This document shows positions 9,936 through 23,123 of a stretch of 64,000 bases of DNA, one piece after another. Source of the stretch: Globodera rostochiensis (lineage: Eukaryota > Nematoda > Chromadorea > Rhabditida > Heteroderidae). The notes beneath the pieces were generated by a model. The model was not told where the DNA came from. It worked only from the letters and a program-made list of their open reading frames with translations, and ran no database searches. The stretch's first letter is position 1; each line of letters begins with the position of its first letter. Both the position numbers and the translations under genes were made by a program. The stretch is taken from the NCBI GenBank assembly GCA_018350325.1, contig JAEVLN010000041.1:1-64000 (forward strand), read 5' to 3'.

Positions 9936-10442
9936 GCCCCCGTCTATCGCATCGACGGCTTCTGCAAAAGCGGTTGAATTGATGAGAATTGAATGATGGG
10001 ATGGGCCAGAGAAGCAAATGGGGGGGGGGGACGGGGGGGGCATGGGACGGAAAGTGTTGAAAAGGAAGAAATAGCAAGAACAAAACTATTCCTCTTTAAA
10101 TAAATCCCTCTGCTGCTGAATCCTTGTTTGGGTGAACCTAATTTCTTTGATCTTTTCTTGCTTTCGTCCCTTTGCCCCCCCTTATCATTTTCACAAACCA
10201 AACTAAGCAAATTCCTCTTTCTTTCCCAACCCTTTAAAACTATTAGCAAATACTTAATTCATTAATTTATCGTATCATTTCCGACACCCATCGATGGTAA
10301 AAAATCACTTTGCCAAGTGCAAATAAATTGAAAGGAAAGGAGGCAAAACGAAAGAGATGCGCGAGACGAAAGGCCATCTGTGCACCCTTCTGATCACCTT
10401 CAGTGACTGGGATCATTCGGTCGGTGAGAAGTGAACGCAATG

Positions 10443-13400
10443 AAGTAATGTGGGGGATGAATGAGAGTAATGTGGGGGATGAATGAGAGTAATGTGGGGG
10501 ATGAATGAGAGTAATGTGGGGGATGAATGAGTGTAATGTGGGGGATATGAGAGTAATGTGAGGGATGAATGAGAGTAATGTGGGGGATGAATGAGAGTAA
10601 TGTGGGGGATGAATGAGAGTAATGTGGGGGATGAATGAGAGTAATGTGGGGGATGAATGAGAGTAATGTGGGGGATGAATGAGAGTATGTGGGGGGATGA
10701 ATGAGTGTAATGTGGGGGATATGAGAGTAATGTGAGGGATGAATGAGAGTAATGTGGGGGATGAATGAGAGTAATGTGGGGGATGAATGAGAGTAATGTG
10801 GGGGATGAATGAGAGTAATGTGGGGGATGAATGAGAGTAATGTGGGGGATGAATGAGAGTAATGTGGGGGATATGAGAGTAATGTGAGGGATGAATGAGA
10901 GTAATGTGGGGGATGAATGAGAGTAATGTGGGGGATGAATGAGAGTAATGTGAGGGATGAATGAGAGTAATGTGGGGGATGAATGAGAGTAATGTGAGGG
11001 ATGAATGAGAGTAATGTGGGGGATGAATGAGAGTAATGTGAGGGATGAATGAGAGTAATGTGGGGGATGAATGAGAGTAATGTGGGGGATGAATGAGAGT
11101 AATGTGAGGGATGAATGAGAGTAATGTGGGGGATGAGATGAAGGTACTGTGAGGGAATGAATGAGAGTATTATGGGGGCGATATGAGAGTAATGGGAGGG
11201 ATAGAATGAGAGTAATGTGGGAGGATGAGAGTATGTGGGGGATGATGGAGTAATGTGAGGGATGAATGAGAGTAATGTGGGGGATCTGAATAGTATGTGA
11301 GTGTGAATGAGAGTAGGTGGGAGATGAATGAGAGTAATGTGGGGGGATATGAGAGTAATGTGAGGGGATGACTGAGTAATGTGAGGATGAATGAGAGTAA
11401 TGTGGGGGAATGAATGAGAGTAATGAGGTGGGGATGAAGATTAGGTATGTGGGAGGATGAATGAGAGTAAATGTAGGGGATGAAAGTAGACGTATATGAT
11501 GGGGGATGAATGCAGAGTGTGGGGGATGAGAGTAATGTGGGGGATGAATGAGAGTAATGGGGGATGAATGAGAGTAATGGGGGGGATGAATGAGAGTAAT
11601 GTGGGGATTATGAGAGTAATGTGAGGGATGAATGAGAGTAATGTGAGGGATGAATGAGAGTAATGTGGAGGGATGAATGAGAGTAATGTGGGGCATGAGG
11701 AGAGTAATGTGGGGGATCTATGAGAGTAATGTGGGGATGAATGAGATAATGTGGGGATGAATGAGAGTAATGTGAGGGATGAATGAGAGTAATGTGGAGG
11801 GATGAATGAGAGTAGTGGGGATGATCGAGAATGTGGGGATGAATGAGAGTAATGTGAGGATGAATGAGAGTAGTACTGTGAGGGATGAATGAGGAGTAAT
11901 GTGGGGGATGAATGAGAGTAATGTGAGGGATATGAATGAGAGTAATGTGGGATGATGAGAGTATGTGGGGGATGAAGGAGAGTAATGTGGGGATGAATGA
12001 GAGTAATGTGGGGGATATGAATGAGAGTAAGTGAGGGATGAATGAGAGTAATGTGAGGGATGAATGAGAGTAATGTGGGGATGATGATAGTAATGTGAGG
12101 GATGAATTAGAGTAATGTGGTGGGAGGCATGAGAGTAATGTGGGGGATATGAAGAGAGTAATGTGAGGGGATGAATGAGAGTAATGTGGGGGATGAATGA
12201 GAGTAATGGGGATGAATGAGTGGAATGTGGGGGATATGAGAGTAATGTGAGGGATGAATGAGAGTAATGTGGGGGATGGAATGAGGTAATGTGAGGGATG
12301 AATGAGAGTAATTGTGGGGGGATGATATGAGAGTAATGTGGGGGATGAATGAGAGTAATGTGGGGATGAATGAGAGTAATGTGGGGGGAATGATGAGAGG
12401 AATGTGAGGGATGAATGAGAGGTAATGTGAGGGGCTATGCATGAGAAGTCATGTGGGGGTGTATGATGAGAGTAATGTGAGGGATGAATGAGAGTAAATG
12501 TTAGGGGGATGAATGAGAGGAATGTGAGGGATGAATGAGAGTAATGTGGGGGATGAATGAGAGTAATGGTGAGGGATGAATGAGAGTAATGTGAGGATGA
12601 CATGAGAGTAATGTGAGGGGCTGTATGAGAGTAATGTGGGGGATGAATGAGAGTAATGTGAGGGATGAATGAGAGTAATGTGGGGGATGAATGAGAGTAA
12701 TGTGAGGGATGAATGAGAGTAATGTGGGGATGAATGAGAGTAATGGGGGATGATAGAGTAATGTGGGGGATGAATGAGAGTAATGTGGGGGATGAATGAG
12801 AGTAATGTGGGGGATGAATGAGAGTAATGTGGGGATGAATGAGAGTAATGTGGGGATGAATGAGAGTAATGTGAGGGATGAATGAGAGTAATGTGGGGGA
12901 TGAATGAGAGTAATGTGGGGGATGAATGAGAGTAATGTGAGGGATGAATGAGAGTAATGTGGGGGATGAATGAGAGTAATGTGTGGGGATGAATGAGAGT
13001 AATGTGAGGGATGAATGAGAGTAATGTGGGGGATGAATGAGAGTAATGTGAGGGATGAATGAGAGTAATGTGAGGGATGAATGAGAGTAATGTGGGGGAT
13101 GAATGAGAGTAATGTGAGGGATGAATGAGAGTAATGTGGGGGATGAATGAGAGTAATGTGAGGGATGAATGAGAGTAATGTGAGGGATGAATGAGAGTAA
13201 TGTGGGGGATGAATGAGAGTAATGTGGGGATGAATGAGAGTAATGTGAGGGATGAATGAGAGTAATGTGGGGGATGAATGAGAGTAATGTGGGGATGAAT
13301 GAGAGTAATGTGGGGGATGAATGAGAGTAATGTGAGGGATGAATGAGAGTAATGTGGGGGATGAATGAGAGTAATTGAGGGATGAATGAGAGTAATGTGG

Positions 13401-13800
13401 GGGATGAATGAGAGTAATGTGGGGATGAATGAGAGTAATGTGAGGGATGAATGAGAGTAATGTGGGGGATGAATGAGAGTAATGTGGGGGATGAATGAGA
13501 GTAATGTGAGGGATGAATGAGAGTAATGTGGGGGATGAATGAGAGTAATGTGAGGGATGAATGAGAGTAATGTGGGGGATGAATGAGAGTAATGTGAGGG
13601 ATGAATGAGAGTAATGTGAGGGATGAATGAGAGTAATGTGAGGGATGAATGAGAGTAATGTGGGGGATGAATGAGAGTAATGTGGGGGATGAATGAGAGT
13701 AATGTGAGGGATGAATGAGAGTAATGTGAGGGATGAATTAGAGTAATGTGGGGGATGAATGAGAGTAATGTGAGGGATGAATGAGAGTAATGTGGGGGAT
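10443..13800. repeat. 3.4 kb minisatellite array, 22-bp unit
   Basis: About 150 head-to-tail copies of gaatgagagtaatgtggggg + at. The main variant changes ggggg to gaggg. Both outer blocks (about 10.44-11.1 kb and 12.6-13.8 kb) are nearly homogeneous; the middle (about 11.14-12.6 kb) is riddled with 1-2 bp indels. Because 22 is not a multiple of 3 and the minus-strand unit has no stop in any phase, the array is open in the minus strand over long stretches and encodes a 22-residue HITLIHPPHYSHSS-type period. That is a property of the repeat, not evidence of a gene. Confidence 0.97.
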
Positions 13801-14254
13801 GAAGAAGAGAAGGAGAAGGTAAATAAAGAAATGAGGATGTGCAAAGTTGCTAAAGGGTCATAACACCAAACAGCGGGAGAAGGACGCAAAAGGAAGATTA
13901 ATGAGTGGCACTGGCGTTATTGGGACCGGATGGATGCGTTGAAAGTTTGTTGGGCCCTTTGCTCTCATTTCAACACTTTCAGAACAAAGAAATCACAACG
14001 GCGCACACTTTTGCGAGCACCGACCCGGCCCATTACCCTCAGCATCGGAGGGTTGTGCACTCGCGGCAAATGACAGGTAAATAAGCGATGAGTCAGCAGG
14101 CTTTTAAGCTGGACCATTTGAGGAATTTAAAAAATTGAAAGAATCCAACGGAAGTTGCAATCCGACGCTTTGTTCTCCAGTAGGTCCGACTTCCACTCAC
14201 TGCCTCTGCTCTTTCTCTCGTTTTGGCTTGTCCAAAACACGTAAACAAATTTGC

Positions 14255-14485
14255 GTCCTCATCCCCCCCCCTCCCCCCCCCTCTCGGCAAAGTTCCTCCC
14301 CCCGCCCCCCCCCCCGGGAAAGTTCCCTCCCCCCTCGGCAAAATCCCCCCCCCCCCCCGGGAAAGTTCCTCTCCCCCCCGGGGAAAGTTCCTCTCCCCCC
14401 CCGGGAAAGTTCTTTCCCGCCCCCTCCCCCCTCCAGGAAAGTCCCTCTTCCCCCTCCTCCCCTCCCCCCCCCCCCGGTCGATTGT
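14255..14485. repeat. C-rich low-complexity tract with 'gggaaagttcctc' words
   Basis: Alternating C runs and cggcaaagttcctc / cgggaaagttcctc units of irregular length. The open frames across it are Pro-rich artefacts. Confidence 0.8.
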
Positions 14486-15018
14486 TTGCGCATCTCTCAA
14501 TTCTCTCCCGCCGCCATTTTGTGGTGGAAATCGCTCGTCCCACACTCAATAAGCCCATCACTCGCACGCCGCAATCCGTCGATGATTGATATTATGTAGT
14601 GTGTACGCCGATGATACGTACGTTCCCGCCATCATTGGAAGCTTTCATCTGCCAAATTCAGAATTGTACTTGAAAATAAAGATTTTTGTACTTGAACCTA
14701 GCCTCAACAAGATGGCAACGCTGCGAGGGTCAAATTGGTTTTTGGTTAATGAGAAGGAAAAAGGCTTTATTTATTATTGACACTTTTTTTGTGCTTTGCT
14801 TTGCCCGCTCTTTCATATTTTCTTCAATTGGCCGCCTCTTCCGATTTTATTCTTATCGCCGATTCCCTTAAGAAGAACGAAATGAAGGGGGCACTCCTCC
14901 GCTAAGGAATGAGTTGATCGAGCGGTGAGTGTTCGCTCGCCTTTTCCATTGTCACTTCCCCTGAAGGGTTTCCCAATCCGCTCTCTCCGTCCCCACGGGC
15001 GTCAATTTCGGCTCGGAC

Positions 15019-18000
15019 ATGGTCGAACTCCGTCACGTGCTGCTTTCTTCGCCCATCCCACGCGCGTCGTTGACGGCTTCTGCTCAACAACCTTCTTCAG
15101 CTGGTCGCCTTATCAATTCTCCGCCTGGTGAGAATCGGACAGAAGAGTCGAACGGCCGACTCAGCGGCCACCTGAGACATTTACCCGCCATTGGCAGTCC
15201 GCCAACATCGCCGTTGGCAAGCAGTTTGATCGGAATCCACGAAGTGAGTGCTTCATTGATGAACATACCCTAAAGCGTTGGCTAACTTAAACACAAAATT
15301 GATAACCTTGGTACAATCCCTGATCGAGTCTCGACATTTCCGGCAATCTTTTCTATTTAGGTCTCTCTCTCGTATGCCCGTCCTGAACTTCTCTCTCCTT
15401 CAGCTGCAGCAGAGGAGCCTAATTTGAGTTCACTTCCCTTCCGTTCTTCGGCACTTCCCTCCTCCGGCAGTGTTCAGATGCATTTCAGCGAAGGAAAGTC
15501 GGGGGGCGATGGGCAATTGCTTTACACCGTCGATCGCCCGCAGGGCGATTGGACTTTTGGCGCAGGCAAATTTCTTCAGGTGAATGCTTTTTTGAGCAAT
15601 CGGCTCGCTCATAATCCTCCAAAGCAGATTAGCGACAGCTTTCCGAAAAAAAGCGAAGCATTCCCCGTGACAATGGGGCGAACAACGACAACAAAAGCGT
15701 CGCCGGAAGACATAACAACGCACCCACAGGCAATGGACAAAATGGAATTCACATCGTTGACGAGGTCGGAAGAACGACAAAAACAGCAACCGCCACAGTC
15801 AAGGATGAGAAGAAGCGGGGAGTGGGAATGGAGGTGAGTGGCGGGGGGGGGGGGGGGGGGGAAGCTCTCCTGGCAAAGAAAGAGTCGAGAAATACAATTC
15901 GGGATTATGGGAGGGCGGCAAGGTTCTTTCTTCATCAAGCGGTGATTTATTTGCTTATTTGCTCTGGGGGACGTCTGTGCTGTGGAGGGTGTAACTTTAA
16001 CTGCGATCATTTTCAACTCACAAAACTTCAATTTACCTATTTCGCGTTTTAGAAATTGCACGCCGATGTTTGGCTGGACATCGCCTCCACAAGTTCAACC
16101 CGTCCCTATACTCAGCCATCATCAGACACGTTCCTATGAAAGCAGCGAGGAGTCGAAGATGTCGGAGGAGAGGGGGACGCGCAAATCGCGAACAGTGTTT
16201 GAGAAAACAACCTGTGAACTCCTCACTGAAAAGTCCGTCACAACATTCGGACGAATGCCTAATGCAAAAGTGCCAACGGCATCGAAACAGTCCAAAAGGC
16301 AGAAGGAACAGCAGCCGATCAGAGTTGTTCAACAACGGCAGAGGCTTCCTCGAATTAGCCAGGAAGAGTTGAACGGGACGTACCTGTACACCCGGTATGG
16401 GGAGGAAGAGGACAGAAGACCGGTGGGAGTGAGAGGGGAGAGCGCATACGTCCAGCAGTCGAATGGAGACAGCAGGAGAGAATGGCGAGTGACAGAAGAA
16501 CAGTCGTCGGTAATGAAAGAGATGAGCAGAACGACGAAGAGTTGGAAAGCGCCCGAGGGGAGGGTGGATGAAAGAACGACAACGCCATTGGTAGTTTTGC
16601 TGTCCGAAAGACCTTTTCGTCGGAAAATGCCTGACAAAATGCCAGAAATAGATGAAGGGGACAGAGCAAAACAATTACAGAGAGCACAGACAACGAGACT
16701 CATCGACTTCGAGACGTACAAGAAAGAAGTGGAGCAACTGCAGAGAAAGGCGGCCGCCCTGGGAGATACAGGAAACGGAAATACATCAATCGAATTGCTG
16801 CCATTGGCACCAGCTATTGTTGTAGCCCCCGGGCATAAAAAAGAGATGGCATTGCCGAAGGCAAAACAACCAACTTTGGAGGCAACTCTAAAGTATTTCT
16901 CCAATGAAGAGTTGATAACAGAGACGATTAAAGAAGCAGAGCATAAAAGAAGAGAGGGGGAGGCTGAAGAGGAATGGGAGAGAGTTGAGAAAGAAGCCAG
17001 GGATTGCATGGAAGAGCGAAGAAAGAAGAGACTGGAAGTGCAAGACGAGGAGAAGAAGGAGAGAATGAGGAAGAGTAGAGAAAATGAAGACAAACTGAGA
17101 AGGATGGAAGAAGACAAACTGAGAAGGATGGAAGAAGACAAACTGAGAAGGATGGAAGAAGACAAACTGAGAAGAATGGAAGAAGACGAAGACAAACTGC
17201 GAAAGATGGAAGAAGACAAACTGAGAAGAATGGAAGAAGTCGAAGACAAACTGAGAAGGATGGAAGAAGATGAACTGAGAAGAATGGAAGAAGACGAAGA
17301 CAAACTGAGAAGGATGGAAGAAGATGAACTGAGAAGAATGGAAGAAGACGAAGACAAACTGAGAAGGATGGAAGAAGACAAACTGAGAAGGATGGAAGAA
17401 GACAAACTGAGAAGGATGGAAGAAGAGTTTAGAAAGGAAAAGCCTTCTCTGATCAGACCACAACCAGTTTACGTATCAACTGCATCTGAATATATGGAAG
17501 TGATCAACTTAGAAAGTCCATCGAAGTTGAACATATTTAAAGAAATGGAAGAAAGTCGTCCATTTTCTGCAGCATCTTCGGTGCTAATCGAAAGGGCAGT
17601 GCCGGTAGAGGAGATGGGAAGCAAACAGAGAGTGAAAGTGATGGAAGAGAAAGGAGGTGAGGAGCCAGGAAGAGAAAAAGAAGATGAACGGAATAAGCCG
17701 GAGGGGGAAGTGGAAAAGGAGGAGCAACAGCAGAAAGAGCAGCGGGAAGAAGTCACTCCGATTGAGTTTGAAGCGGACGCGGGCAGAGGCCTGGGGAGAC
17801 ATCTTCTGGAGACTCTGTCGAGAGAGTTGCAGTATCAGGAGGAGATTGACATGGAGGTCAGCAGGAGAAGGCGCAAGATAGTAGCTGACGGAGGAGAAGG
17901 ACGGGAGGCGGAAGAGGAGGGACGGAGGGACGAGCACGAAGACAAAGAAGTTCGGATGGGGCAAAAAAAGAAGAGGCCGACAGAAGAAGAGGAAGAAGAG

Positions 18001-19998
18001 CCTGAACTGTCGCGCATGGAGGACACGGGAGGAGAACACATTTTGTGGGGAAGAGTTCCGCAGCAGCAACAGGTGGGAAGGGGGAGGGGGCTGAGGCGGG
18101 CGAGAAAAATGTCCGGTCGGGTCAACCCAACCGAGTTTTGGGTAACCCAGTGCAACCCTGGAGGGGAGGGGGTGGGGGGGAGGGAGGGGAGGGGGCAAGT
18201 AGAAAACGCCCCGAGGCGTCATTGTGCGCGGATTTTTAATTAGCCTAACCACAGTACCCCCCCCCCCCCCATAAATGCCATTGAATTGACAGAAAGCGAC
18301 AGCGGCGACCTGCTTCGTGCCAATTCATCGTCACGGCGCCAAAGTGTCCATCTCCGGCGAGTTGTCGTCGCTTCCGCCGGTGAGGGAAGAGGGTGAAGAC
18401 GAAGAGCCAACCTTCGAGGAGAAAGTGGTGAGTGTTCGTGTAACCAGACCGCGATGCTTTCCTTTTCTTTCCCAACACGGCCATTCGTTCATCCGAACGC
18501 CGTTTACGAGCAGTTGTTCCCGTCTTTGAATTGTCTGTTCTTCTGCTGCCGACGAATTATCGGACCATTTCCTCCGATAAACTTTGTAATTCCTTCCAAA
18601 AGTGGCCATTTGCAAACATTTCGCCCCAATTTCGTTTTGTGCGTTTCTTATCGGCAATTTGTGACGATGGGTTGAGCCGATTGTGTACAAAACTCGCCGA
18701 ACCGACACAAATTGCTGAAAAGCCCCCCCCCCCTTCGCAAATGATGGAATGTCACACATTCTCTCTCACACTCACTAATCTCTCCAAACGCAATTCCTGT
18801 GAGATCATAAGAAGACGATACAAGCTCATAAAGGCGACTAAGCACTACAAAACTTCAGAAACTTTTGGAATTTTACGAATGAAACAGAGCGAAAAACAAC
18901 GCCAACGACTTCGACACGTACGTGCAGAACAACTGAACAGTGCGTCCGACGTGTCCAGTGAGGGATCAATTTCGCCGGAAGTGCGGCGAGTTCAAAAGGT
19001 GTGATTGGTTTCTCTTTGCAAGCGGGACGGCGCTGACTCATCTCGCGGCTATGCTCAACCCCAACAAATTGTCCATCCCTTTCCCACTTTCATCTCTTTC
19101 CATTCTTCCCGAATCTCACCATTCATTCGTTCCATCCTTTTGTGCTCTCTTTAAATTCCAATCTCGCATTCATAGCAATCATTTTAATGTTTCTTTTTCC
19201 CTGCGAGCAATGATTAAGCAAGCATTGCAAAGCACACTTTGTTTGTTGTGTTTGCAATGCAAACTCTCCCCCCCCTCCCTCCCTCTCTAGTCCTTCCCCC
19301 CCTCCCCCCCCTCCCTTCCCCCCCCCCCTCCCTCTTTAGTCCTTCCCCTCCTCCCCCCCCCCCCTCCCTCTTTAGTCCTTCCCCCCCTCCCCCCCCCCTC
19401 CCTTCCCCCCCCCCTCCCTCCCTCTTTAGTCCTTCCCCCCCTCCCCCCCCCCTCCCTTCCCCCCCCCCCCCCCCCCTCCCTCTTTAGTCCTTCCCCCCCT
19501 CCCCCCCCCTCCCTCTTTAGTCCTTCCCCCCCTCCCCCCCCCTCCCTCTTTAGTCCTTCCCCCCCTCCCCCCCCCCCTCCCTTCCCCCCCCCCCCCCCCC
19601 TCCCTCTTTAGTCCTCCCCTCCTCACAATCAGCACTTCTTTGCTTCATCCTCCCCCTTTCCAATTCACTTCTTTCTTCCTCCCGCCCTCAACCCCTGCTT
19701 AATTAGCGCCATCTTCTCTTATCTGGTTAATTTTTATGCGTTTTTATTCAATCGCTTTTTCTCTATGCATTTTCCATTTTGTTAGGTTGAGGAGACCAGC
19801 ACAACGCAAACAGTTCCCAGCCGAAAGCGAGTGCCTCCTCCGCCCCCTCCGAAACCGCCGCATTCCATCTTCGGCACCGGCACTGCCCACCAACAGACGA
19901 CGGTTGCTTCCGAGCCGCACCTTCGTGAGTCGTCCTTCTCTTCCGTCTACTCCAACTTTCCACAAACTTACTCCACTCTTCACACATACAACACGTAA
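15019..19998 (+). CDS. long Glu/Arg-rich repeat protein upstream of, and possibly spliced to, the IFB-like gene
   Basis: Exons 15019-15243, 15361-15833, 16053-18072, 18293-18427, 18888-18998 and 19786-19994 join with every phase matching, giving about 1058 residues. The first two exons are Ser/Pro-rich. The large exon is strongly charged, with a coiled-coil repeat block of KLRRMEED-type units (residues about 580-700) and flanking Glu/Lys-rich segments. The next exon contains FVPIHRHGAKVSISGELSS, and the last holds a polyproline stretch (VPPPPPPKPP). I do not recognise the family. The last exon either stops at 19996-19998 (acg taa) or uses the gtaagg donor at 19995, which joins in frame to the acceptor just before the IFB ATG at 20308. 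The 5' start is uncertain: ATG 15019 is the first in-frame Met after a stop at 14962, but an acceptor near 14970 could bring in an upstream exon. Probably cytoskeletal; that is inference. Confidence 0.6.
17088..17430 (+). repeat. coding 24/30-bp repeat (DKLRRMEE units)
   Basis: About 13 tandem copies of a 24-bp unit (gacaaactgagaaggatgga + aga), some extended by gacgaa to 30 bp. They are all in frame, encoding (E)DKLRRMEE with variants DELRRMEE and VEDKLRRMEE. The near-identity of copies implies recent expansion. The unit is compatible with a charged single alpha-helix or coiled coil. Confidence 0.9.
18999..19785 (+). other. intron containing a pyrimidine minisatellite
   Basis: Inferred intron between the phase-0 exons ending at 18998 and starting at 19786 (ttttgttag acceptor). 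Most of its 3' half is repeat. Confidence 0.55.
19266..19618. repeat. C/T minisatellite, 30-60 bp units
   Basis: Repeated blocks of ccctctttagtccttccccc followed by C runs of varying length. It lies in the inferred intron; the unit itself carries a ctttag acceptor-like word each time. Confidence 0.9.
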
Positions 19999-20109
19999 GG
20001 CTGGCGTGGCGGTACAAACAAAATGAAAAAGTTTTTGTTGACAGTGATTACGGGGGAAAATAATCCGTTTATGGGGGAGGGATTGTTGTCGTCGTCGTCG
20101 GCTTGGGGG

Positions 20110-20215
20110 GACGGGGCGAGGGATGGGGGGGGGGGGTGGGGGGGGGGGTGCTCATCTGCTGGGGGGGGGGGGGGGCTCTGCACGTCTTCCTCCTCCCCCC
20201 CCCCCCCCTCCCCCG
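20110..20215. repeat. adjacent G-run and C-run tracts
   Basis: G-rich (20125-20175) followed by C-rich (20195-20215) tracts in the intron or 5' region just ahead of the IFB start. They could form a G-rich hairpin or quadruplex. Confidence 0.7.
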
Positions 20216-20307
20216 CCCAATTTATGCATAGTTTTTGCATTTCACAATATATACTTGCCGAATTTCCCCCATCACTGCAAAAACCGTACTTTCCCGCCCC
20301 GCTAAGG

Positions 20308-22345
20308 ATGGATAGTCCGGCCAGCAGCGATTACCGGAGTGCGATTTCCTCCCGTCCGTACTTTCCCCGGCCCCGGCCTTTGTCCCCCGCTCGCTATTCG
20401 TCCGATGGAGGCCCTCGAGTGCTGAAAATGGTCAGCGAGTGCTCCTCCATCAGCAGCCGCCCCATGTCGCCCTACCCCGGTTCCACGGCTGCTTCGGCAA
20501 TCCGGGATGCGCGAGAACGGGAGAAGAAGGAGATGAGCGAGCTGAACGATCGGTTGGCCAACTACATTGAGAAGGCAGGAAGTCTTTTTGAGTAAAACTT
20601 AATCAAACACTTTAGGTTCGCTTTTTGGAGGCACAAAACCGCAAATTGGCCACGGATTTGGACTTTTTGCACAAAAGATGGGGAAAAGACGCGTCCAATG
20701 TGCGCGAAATGTATGAGACGGATTTGCGCCAGGCTAAAAAACTTTTGGAAGAGGCACAACGCCAAAAGAACGAATTGGAGAAGAAGGCGAAAGCGATGGG
20801 AGACGAAATGGAAACTCTGATGAAGAAGTTCGTGAAAGCATCTGGGATCAAAATTAATGACAGGCGATAAAGTGATTTATTGAAGGCACGCCGACGCGCT
20901 GAGTGCTCATGACGAGGACAAAAAGTTGATGGAAGAACTGCTGTTGAATCTTTCCTCCCTGGAGGCCGAGTTGGGCACGTTGAAGCGACGGTTGGGAATC
21001 TTGGAAGACGACCTGAAAGCATTGAGGCGAGAAAACCAGCACTTGAGTGGGGAAACGCATAAGGCCAGGACGGATCTGGACCAGGTTGGAGCAGCACAAA
21101 GTCTTGTCAATAACGGCATTTGGCTCTTGCCAGGAAACGCTGAACAGAATCGACTACCAAAACCAAGTGCAGACTCTGCTGGAAGAGATTGACTTCCTTC
21201 GCCGGGCGCATGAGGCTGAGATTCAGGATTTGCAGGCCATGGCTTCACGTGACACAACCGGGGAAAACCGCGAGTTCTTTCGCAACGAACTCGCCTCGGC
21301 TATCCGTGAGATCCGTAGCAATTATGATGCGTTAGACACCCGAAACCGGAGCGACATTGAGTCCTGGTACAAAATGAAGGTGCAGGAGATACAGACAATG
21401 AGTGCACGCCAAAACCTGGAGCAGAATTATGCCAAGGAAGAGGTAAAGCGGTTGCGCACCCAGCTTGGAGATCTGCGCGGAAAGCTGGCCGATTTGGAGG
21501 GTCGCAACTCTCTGCTGGAGAGGCAGGTGGAGGAGTTGGCCTACCAATTGGAGGACGACCAAAGGGCTTACGAATCGGCACTGAACGATAAGGACTCGCA
21601 GATCCGGAAGTTGCGTGATGAAGCACAAGCACTTATGCTGGAGCTGCAGATGTTGCTGGACACCAAACAGACGCTGGACGCTGAAATTGCCATCTATCGA
21701 AAAATGCTGGAGGGGGAGGAGGACCGGTCCGGGCTGTACCAGCTGGTGGAGCAGGTGGTCAAGAGTCAGAACATCCGACGGCAGGACGAGGCTGGTCAGT
21801 TTACCTGTGGACATATTGGCATTGGCTTAAAATATGCGTCCACACCAACGTCAGAGTCTCAGCGCGTACTGCGTGGCGAAAAGTCCTCCCGGCAGTCTTA
21901 TCAGAGATCTGCCAAAGGAAATGTGTCCGTACTTGAGACCTCTCCCGAGGGGAAGTACGTTGTACTGGAGAACACCCACCGGTCCAAGGAGGAGCCCATT
22001 GGGGGGTGGAAGTTGAGGCGACGCATTGACGGGAAGCGCGAAATTATGTACACTTTCCCCCAAGAGTTTGTGCTAAGGCCCGGAAAAACTGTCAAGGTTG
22101 GGTAAAAGGTCAAAATGAAAGGCCAAAACTTTTTTGAAGGTTTGGGCTCGAGGACAGGGCCTCAATGCCCCGCCCGATCAGTTGGTTTCTGACGGAGAGG
22201 AGTCTTTTGGGACTGGCTCCAACGTACAAACTTTGTTGTACAACCGAGATGGGGAGGTGAGTGAGCGCCGATCGCTAATCGGCTTTTGATTTAAATCGAT
22301 TTGAAGGAACGCGCTTCGCTTATCCAACGTTGCAGCGGCCGCTGA
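20308..22345 (+). CDS. ifb: cytoplasmic intermediate filament protein, IFB class
   Basis: Seven exons: 20308-20574, 20616-20827, 20886-21084, 21134-21794, 21855-22096, 22140-22256, 22307-22345; 578 aa with all phases matching. A Ser/Pro-rich head is followed by the rod: start motif [20 protein letters not shown], the long nematode coil 1B, linkers and coil 2, ending with the classic consensus [15 protein letters not shown]. The tail is a lamin-type immunoglobulin fold ([66 protein letters not shown]). The tail wording is closest to C. elegans IFB-1/IFB-2, obligate partners of IFA proteins in epidermal hemidesmosome attachments and intestine. The chain ends soon after EERASLIQR. The ATG at 20308 follows a tAAG acceptor, so an upstream exon may be spliced on. 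The intron after exon 1 is GC-AG. Confidence 0.95.
20575..20615 (+). other. non-canonical GC-AG intron in the IFB-like gene
   Basis: The rod start is invariant in intermediate filaments ([15 protein letters not shown]). The exon ends ...gag aag and the next begins gtt cgc; the 41-bp intervening sequence starts gcagga and ends tttag. No GT donor could preserve the motif. Confidence 0.9.
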
Positions 22346-23123
22346 TCACTTACTTAAGAGACCGCCTTTTATTACCAATCATTGAATTTGTAAGTACATT
22401 TATTGAACGAACAACCAATCACTTCGCTGAACGTTACTTAGTCATGGCCTCCACAACCTTTATACTGGGGTTAGTCCCCGACCCCAATCCCCGACATGGC
22501 CTCCCCGACCCCCGAGGGGTTGGAGACCAACCCAACTTTATATCACAGCTTCAAACTTTCCTCTTATCATTCCACTTTACTCATAAGGCGCAATTTACCA
22601 TCGAAAATTTACTTTTTCTGCTGCTATTTTCGAGAAATTCCCTTTCTTCTCTTCTAAAAGTGTAATGTCTATCAATTCAATGTGCAAATAAATTGAAATG
22701 TCGGAGGTAATAAATATTATTAATATTGGAACGATTGGTATAAGTTTTGTTCGATTTTGGCTCTGGCCGCTATGACCGAATTTACCATATTTTCAAATAT
22801 TTTTAAAATTAAAATGCGTGCAAAAACATAATGGCTGAAAAAATTCAAATTTTAAACACAAACCCGATCATATTATAAAACTGTAACCACTCACAAGGAA
22901 TAGTTTATAACGGAAGAACATTGAGCGATTAAGGGCAAAAATGCGATGCGGGAGTGAGATCAGCTGAGGATGAAGAATATTGATCAGAGGTGTTAGGGGA
23001 AGATAAGGCAGGACAGGACAGTCAGTCCGTGGACATATCCGAAAGGTATGAAAATGTCTCCATGGACAGCCCAGCCAATTGGGGATGAAGAAGAAGAACA
23101 ACCAAAATGACCAATGACCATCG
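22346..23123. other. convergent 3' intergenic region
   Basis: The region between the 3' ends of the intermediate filament gene (+) and the kinase gene (-). A short open plus-strand frame (22330-22665) has no family likeness. AT-rich stretches with several aataaa-like words (22686-22720) fit 3' end formation. Confidence 0.5.

What the first reader, a model, noticed from the sequence alone, without database searches (positions are those of the whole stretch)
15019..22345. Possible 1,600-residue fusion isoform: a charged repeat protein spliced in frame to an intermediate filament
The six exons of the upstream Glu/Arg-rich gene all join in phase. Its last exon offers a GTAAGG donor (19995) in exactly the phase needed to reach the AAG acceptor just before the IFB ATG (20307), adding about 1,058 residues to a 578-residue filament protein. 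The alternative is a stop three bases after the donor. If used, this would be an intermediate filament with a giant N-terminal extension containing a KLRRMEED helix array and a polyproline segment.
Basis: partly seen in the sequence, partly recalled or inferred. Interest (0 to 1): 0.75.

Follow-up and report, generated by a model that had tools for sequence, protein, structure and literature searches.

The report
Giant-headed nematode intermediate filament gene
A cyst-nematode-like genome holds a cell-skeleton filament gene preceded, in the same reading frame, by about 1,100 extra residues whose front end matches that of a long Caenorhabditis filament protein (likely EXC-2/IFC-2, which lines worm tubes), so the gene likely makes both a giant and an ordinary filament protein, a layout already known for that worm gene.

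Summary
The stop at 19996 is a by-product of the donor: a phase-2 GTAAG donor always reads xxG-TAA when not spliced. The gene model was incomplete: the start lies about 4.7 kb upstream (ATG 10357), with three further exons, giving a predicted 1,723 residues (1,686 without an unsupported 37-residue exon). Eighteen gene models from 13 nematode genera carry a long extension joined to a related IF, each with a Met at the junction, as expected for an internal short-isoform start. The first ~45 residues are homologous to the N-terminus of long Caenorhabditis IFs that I take to be IFC-2/EXC-2. In C. elegans that long product is reported on immunoblots, and a second, internal promoter makes the short form. 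Best reading: one gene, a long isoform by cis-splicing and a short one from an internal start; a known layout on a different IF type, probably A-type rather than 'IFB'. No RNA of this species was available. New variant of a known kind, of moderate interest.

The parts
10357..10419 (+). Exon 1: predicted start of the long isoform, first half of the conserved N-terminal module (MRETKGHLCTLLITFSDWDHS)
   Evidence: tblastn with P0002, E 6e-6; phase-compatible with exon 2; same length as H. trifolii at the join. Its donor GTCGGT is weak.
10439..13803 (.). 22-bp minisatellite, about 154 copies, inside intron 1 (10420-13982)
   Evidence: TRF
13983..14076 (+). Exon 2: second half of the N-terminal module (NKEITTAHTFASTDPAHYPQHRRVVHSRQM...)
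   Evidence: tblastn with P0002 E 5e-14 and P0004 E 8e-11; only place found in the genome
14873..14924 (+). Exon 3 (short; inferred from phase and weak similarity to Heterodera)
   Evidence: no database hit of its own
14967..15243 (+).
   Evidence: tblastn with P0002 begins at 14965
15361..15833 (+). Exon 5
16053..18072 (+). Exon 6, Glu/Arg/Lys-rich; KLRRMEED array at 17079-17426
   Evidence: 72.7% identity to G. pallida P0001 over window residues 325-1145
18293..18427 (+). Exon 7 (FVPIHRHGAKVSISGEL), only place found in the genome
   Evidence: a counterpart is seen by eye in P0001-P0003 and P0005
18888..18998 (+). Doubtful 37-residue cassette, phase 0, absent from the G. pallida and Heterodera models
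19786..19994 (+). Last extension exon (polyproline; ...LHTYNT); unspliced read-through stops at TAA 19996-19998
   Evidence: end conserved in P0001-P0003
19995..20306 (+). Junction intron (phase 2, AC|GTAAGG ... GCTAAG|G); presumed place of the short isoform's promoter or trans-splice site; TATATA at 20248; no AATAAA in 19999-20306
20307..20574 (+). First IF exon; ATG 20308 is the conserved junction Met and the presumed start of the 578-residue short isoform
20616..20827 (+). IF exon (coil 1); the preceding intron has a GC donor
20886..21084 (+). IF exon
21134..21794 (+). IF exon (coil 2); the enclosing open frame matches Pfam Filament, E 1.4e-41
21855..22096 (+). IF exon (tail)
22140..22256 (+). 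IF exon (tail)
22307..22345 (+). Last IF exon with stop; AATAAA at 22687 and 22709

Best explanation
One gene at 10357-22345 encodes a nematode cytoplasmic intermediate filament that is predicted to be made in two forms: a roughly 1,700-residue form whose extension exons are likely cis-spliced (19994 to 20307) to the filament exons, and a 578-residue form likely started at ATG 20308 from its own promoter or by spliced-leader trans-splicing at the same acceptor. Shown by sequence: the in-frame join, the homology of the extension's first ~45 residues to long Caenorhabditis filament proteins, and a join at the same Met in 18 other nematode gene models. Inferred: that those Caenorhabditis proteins are IFC-2/EXC-2, and that both transcripts are made in this species. 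Inferred mechanism: the long form co-assembles in small amounts with short A- and B-type chains through its ordinary rod. Its extension (conserved docking module, then a long charged helical or disordered spacer) projects from the filament and tethers it to an apical or junctional membrane site. The balance of the two forms would then set how tightly the filament layer is anchored.
For: In-phase exon chain across the junction. Eighteen long nematode proteins with extension plus IF in 13 genera: Globodera, Heterodera, Meloidogyne, Aphelenchoides, Halicephalobus, Steinernema, Strongyloides, Parastrongyloides, Rhabditophanes, Brugia, Parascaris, Pristionchus, Mesorhabditis; in 18 of 18 a Met sits at the junction. 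The G. pallida and Heterodera models end the extension with the same ...LHTYNT. Extension homology: H. trifolii 55.7% over window residues 1-610; 12 of the 18 hit the window's extension directly by BLAST and 4 more in one step. A profile of the N-terminal module built without Caenorhabditis finds P0028 and P0025 at E 1.2e-16 and 4.5e-15, against 0.01 for the best of 2,000 shuffles. In C. elegans the same layout is documented: IFC-2a/b (1,128/1,248 residues) with a non-IF amino-terminal half, reported on immunoblots, and short IFC-2d/e from a second promoter in intron 10 (PMC7035338 section 5, part 1 of 2). [quoted passage not shown] No AATAAA between the extension stop and the IF ATG, two after the IF stop.
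Against: No RNA or peptide evidence for this species. The 18 proteins are gene models, and models do merge neighbours: P0008 begins with a peroxiredoxin, and P0015 (no extension) runs into a second domain annotated PF01138. Only in-frame merges can be reported, so the in-frame fusion is partly ascertained. Two Steinernema models (P0029, P0030) carry the extension without the IF. The extensions of Brugia and Parascaris gave no BLAST link in the comparisons printed (six queries). Outside its relatives the window's extension aligns mainly through the N-terminal module. P0025-P0028 were not compared with a C. elegans IFC-2 sequence, which I did not have. The acceptor is AAG and could equally be a trans-splice site; SL1 sequences are abundant.
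Confidence: 0.8

Rival explanations
1. Two genes in an operon-like pair: the upstream gene ends at TAA 19996 with its own poly(A) and the IF messenger is made only by spliced-leader trans-splicing at 20306, so no fusion protein exists.
For: The gap of about 310 bp and an acceptor one base before the ATG suit trans-splicing; SL1 occurs at 122 exact places in the genome; variant poly(A) hexamers AATGAA 20022 and AATATA 20246 lie in the gap; two Steinernema models carry the extension alone.
Against: The stop is automatic for a phase-2 GTAAG donor; no AATAAA in the gap; in-frame joins at the same Met in 18 models from 13 genera; a homologous N-terminal module heads long Caenorhabditis IF proteins, and C. 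elegans IFC-2a/b are reported as protein.
Confidence: 0.12
2. All three products are made: extension alone (like IFC-2c), long fusion and short IF, the first by retaining the junction intron.
For: The same three kinds of product are listed for C. elegans ifc-2; the donor itself supplies the stop.
Against: [quoted passage not shown] here nothing tests it.
Confidence: 0.25
3. The merge is an artefact of gene prediction over conserved gene neighbours, with no functional link.
For: False merges are visible in the same hit list (P0008, P0015).
Against: Would need the same neighbour, strand, order and a joinable frame kept in many genera, and would leave the homology to the long Caenorhabditis IF proteins unexplained.
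Confidence: 0.05

Closest known systems
C. elegans IFC-2a/IFC-2b (EXC-2a/b), gene ifc-2
   Same: Long non-IF amino-terminal half joined to a C-terminal IF, and a short IF-only form from an internal start. Homologous N-terminal module in P0025 (C. briggsae) and P0028 (unnamed), which I take to be IFC-2 from architecture, size and their a/b-like different C-termini.
   Different: P0025-P0028 are only 35-38% identical to the window in the aligned part and P0025-P0027 sit on a very long branch. The window has about 1,210 residues before the rod against about 760 in P0025 and P0028, and a KLRRMEED array not seen in either.
Long IF gene models of other nematodes, e.g. Pristionchus 'Ifa-1' (P0013), Brugia BM12386 (P0006), Strongyloides ratti (P0018), Heterodera (P0002, P0003)
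   Same: Extension plus IF with the junction Met; 48-91% identical over the part aligned to residues 925-1636 of the fusion.
   Different: Body of the extension diverges strongly; charged repeats present in only some lineages.
Nematode IFB-1
   Same: Cytoplasmic IF with a lamin-like rod.
   Different: The distant IF gene on contig C1 (L020) fits IFB-1 better by recalled motifs; the only gene-level name shown among the close nematode hits is 'Ifa-1' (P0013; names are cut off in the listing). Not settled.
Vertebrate IFs with giant terminal domains (nestin, synemin, neurofilament M/H; recalled)
   Same: A rod carrying a very long projecting charged domain, thought to space or tether filaments.
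   Different: Those extensions are C-terminal; no homology claimed.

Membership tests
Cytoplasmic intermediate filament protein | Filament rod (PF00038) | tested here: met
   E 1.4e-41, 143.6 bits against cut-off 40, one exon's open frame alone
Cytoplasmic intermediate filament protein | Lamin tail domain (PF00932) | tested here: inconclusive
   Precomputed for P0001-P0003; my Pfam scans listed it in 2 of 6 long relatives (P0009, P0014) and not in P0002, and not in the window frame given, which lacked the last two exons
EXC-2/IFC-2-type long IF | Homologous N-terminal module | tested here: met
   Profile without Caenorhabditis: E 1.2e-16 and 4.5e-15 to 2 of 4 IFC-2-like proteins; the other 2 models start downstream of the module. 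C. elegans IFC-2 itself was not in hand
EXC-2/IFC-2-type long IF | Extension in frame with the IF | tested here: met
   (as a reading frame; not as RNA)
EXC-2/IFC-2-type long IF | IFC-2-type IF moiety (orthology) | tested here: not met
   P0025-P0027 form a separate, long-branch clade; the window groups with Heterodera and Meloidogyne, 100/99
EXC-2/IFC-2-type long IF | Second promoter or internal start for the short form | not testable with these tools
   Only suggestive: TATATA 20248 and a conserved junction Met
IFB-1 | Closer to B-type than to A-type IFs | tested here: inconclusive
   No labelled IFB-1 in hand; the 'Ifa-1' name on P0013 and a more distant C1 paralogue point to A-type
SL operon | Downstream mRNA carries a spliced leader and upstream mRNA its own poly(A) | not testable with these tools
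   SL1 sequence present 122 times; no RNA data

The most novel reading that the evidence does not exclude
The giant-headed IF is the ancestral nematode state: a nematode-wide N-terminal anchoring module belongs to an A-type filament gene with a dual start, and Caenorhabditis ifc-2/exc-2 is the derived case in which the module sits on a strongly diverged filament. The EXC-2 tube-anchoring function would then be an ancient property of A-type filaments in parasites and free-living worms alike.
Probability: 0.45. Interest if true: 0.65.

Novelty: new variant of a known kind. Interest (0 to 1): 0.5.

Why it matters
EXC-2, which a review sets apart for its much longer N-terminal domain, has been proposed as key to lumen regulation in the C. 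elegans excretory canal (PMC7557474 passage). Finding a homologous module on a different filament type, in the window and in 10 of the 18 long gene models of other nematodes, gives a conserved ~45-residue target to mutate and an evolutionary handle on what it binds. It also warns that nematode filament genes catalogued only by their ~580-residue form may be missing their largest product.

Tried and rejected
Search with the six-sequence extension alignment A2 scored 7,984 candidates and returned nothing at E<=0.01; its low-complexity words probably swamped the candidate list and its length limits excluded the known long relatives, so I do not read it as absence. A trimmed alignment A3 returned 2 proteins among 7,994 candidates. 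Pfam scan of the N-terminal module: no family for 2 of 2 sequences. PDB search with one of them: nothing better than E 0.62. I did not predict structures: the long relatives exceed the 1,200-residue limit and the rules did not clearly cover fragments. An alternative exon-1 donor (10424, GTGAGA) was rejected because its phase does not fit exon 2. Exon 18888-18998 was kept only as doubtful.

The tree could not date the move of the module: the IFC-2-like clade, a mollusc row and the C1 paralogue are long branches, and 10 of 22 inner branches are open. Of 30 returned proteins 22 went in; left out: P0001, P0021, P0028-P0030 (not given), P0020, P0022, P0023 (rod motif not matched). The C23b paralogue was not given either.

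Literature: search listings (several capped: 15 of 50, 10 of 29 and 10 of 138 papers shown) held no paper whose title or abstract start describes a long A- or B-type IF isoform outside Caenorhabditis. Beyond listings I saw passages of PMC6362198, PMC7035338, PMC7557474, PMC4351089 and PMC10281669 and section 5, part 1 of 2, of PMC7035338. Al-Hashimi 2018 was not held; Karabinos 2019 was seen only as a reference.
Full report
WHAT IS THERE. The window is the start of a contig in a 92.6-Mb, 80-contig genome. The locus encodes a protein 86% identical to a Globodera pallida model over 1,414 aligned columns (148 of them gaps), so the source is a Globodera-like cyst nematode (inference). Six exons join in phase to a 1,058-residue frame, and the 19994|20307 join is in frame with a seven-exon, 578-residue intermediate filament. 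IF exon 2 follows a GC-AG intron. Three of the six IF acceptors end in AAG, like the junction acceptor, so the junction acceptor is not unusual for this gene.

THE STOP IS NOT EVIDENCE. The upstream frame 'ends' at TAA 19996-19998. With two coding bases before a GTAAG donor, unspliced reading is always xxG-TAA. The stop therefore follows from the donor and cannot be counted as a separate sign that the gene ends there. It only makes an extension-only product cheap if the intron is retained.

A short exon at 14873-14924 closes the phase between them. Intron 1 carries about 154 copies of a 22-bp minisatellite.

RELATIVES. A database search with residues 925-1636 of the fusion gave 28 hits at E<=0.001 among 7,979 scored candidates: 18 long nematode proteins with extension plus IF, 1 Dirofilaria IF without extension (P0015), 5 mollusc proteins, and 4 IFC-2-like proteins (3 Caenorhabditis, 1 unnamed). 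In all 18 a Met followed by the same head motif sits at the junction, as expected if that Met also starts a short isoform. BLAST among extensions cut at that Met (hits printed for six queries) links the window directly to P0001-P0005, P0009, P0010, P0012, P0013 and P0017-P0019 (12), and in one further step to P0008, P0011, P0014 and P0016 (4); P0006 and P0007 were not linked. Meloidogyne, Heterodera and G. pallida also share the exon-7 motif and the polyproline exon just before the junction (read by eye). A later search (A3) found the extension without the IF in two Steinernema models, P0029 and P0030.

THE LINK TO EXC-2. The N-terminal ~45 residues (L-C/A-T-L...F/Y-x-D...T-T/S-x-H-x-F...Y-P-Q-x-R) occur in the window, in 10 of the 18 long proteins (P0011 only partly), partly in the Steinernema extension-only model P0029, and in 2 of the 4 IFC-2-like proteins. 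A profile built from nine sequences without Caenorhabditis scores P0028 and P0025 at E 1.2e-16 and 4.5e-15; the best of 2,000 shuffled sequences reached 0.01, and none of the other eight real proteins given appears among the eight best rows printed. Mesorhabditis P0014 and C. briggsae P0025 also align further inside (26% over about 260 residues, E 1e-7). I take P0025-P0028 to be IFC-2/EXC-2 because of their architecture, their lengths, and the different C-termini of P0025 and P0028, which resemble the published a/b forms; I had no C. elegans IFC-2 sequence to compare. In C. elegans this gene makes IFC-2a/b with a non-IF amino-terminal half, reported on immunoblots, and IF-only IFC-2d/e from a second promoter in intron 10; an N-half-only IFC-2c is unproven (PMC7035338 section 5, part 1, and passage). 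The window locus has the same plan.

WHICH FILAMENT TYPE. The genome searches gave five loci with filament-rod matches (a lower bound): window, two on C23, C1 and C15. The C23 genes are about 70% identical in coil 2; C1 is much further away. Pristionchus P0013 is named 'Ifa-1' by its source, and by recalled motifs the C1 gene looks like IFB-1. A-type is therefore more likely, but I had no labelled IFB-1 to test. The N-terminal module was found only here in the genome, so no second long IF carries a recognisable copy.

HOW IT PROBABLY WORKS. Shown: frame, splice signals, homology. Inferred: the long form is made by cis-splicing, the short form from ATG 20308. The 312-bp intron holds TATATA at 20248 and no AATAAA; SL1 occurs at 122 exact places in the genome, so trans-splicing at the same acceptor is possible. 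The extension would project from the filament: a conserved docking module, then a spacer whose 100-residue bins reach 65-68% charged residues at residues 601-800. [quoted passage not shown] The same review credits the C-terminus with retaining EXC-9 at the apical surface; the docking role of the N-terminus is my inference.

LIMITS. No RNA, no peptides, and no DNA of the other nematodes. Gene models can be falsely merged, as P0008 and P0015 show. The in-frame joins are partly ascertained, since out-of-frame neighbours would not appear as one protein.

Noticed in passing
window 10439-13803: A 22-bp minisatellite of about 154 copies (unit AATGAGAGTAATGTGGGGGATG, 87% matches) fills most of the first intron.
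   Followed up: partly
window 17079-17426: The in-frame KLRRMEED array is itself a DNA tandem repeat (24/54-bp periods); the G. pallida model carries a differently arranged array, so the helix length probably varies between species.
   Followed up: partly
window 19269-19657: Long C-rich tandem tracts with repeated CTTTAGTCC acceptor-like words in the intron before the last extension exon.
   Followed up: no
L019 (G000:C23:2648000-2657000): Second C23 filament gene copy looks degraded next to L018: small gaps and no match beyond query residue 399 within the 9 kb read; possibly a pseudogene of a tandem duplication.
   Followed up: no
P0008 and P0015: Apparent annotation merges: a peroxiredoxin in front of the Halicephalobus filament protein, and an unrelated PF01138 domain behind a Dirofilaria filament protein.
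   Followed up: partly
P0004: The search's precomputed Pfam list gives PF24161 for the Steinernema protein, which my own Pfam scan did not list at E<=0.1.
   Followed up: no
G000 contigs C12 (4258591-4283811) and C23 (4804578-4823284): Tandem arrays of the 22-base SL1 sequence, spaced about 1.2 kb and 1.6 kb.
   Followed up: no
window 20575-20615: 41-bp GC-AG intron in the filament gene.
   Followed up: no
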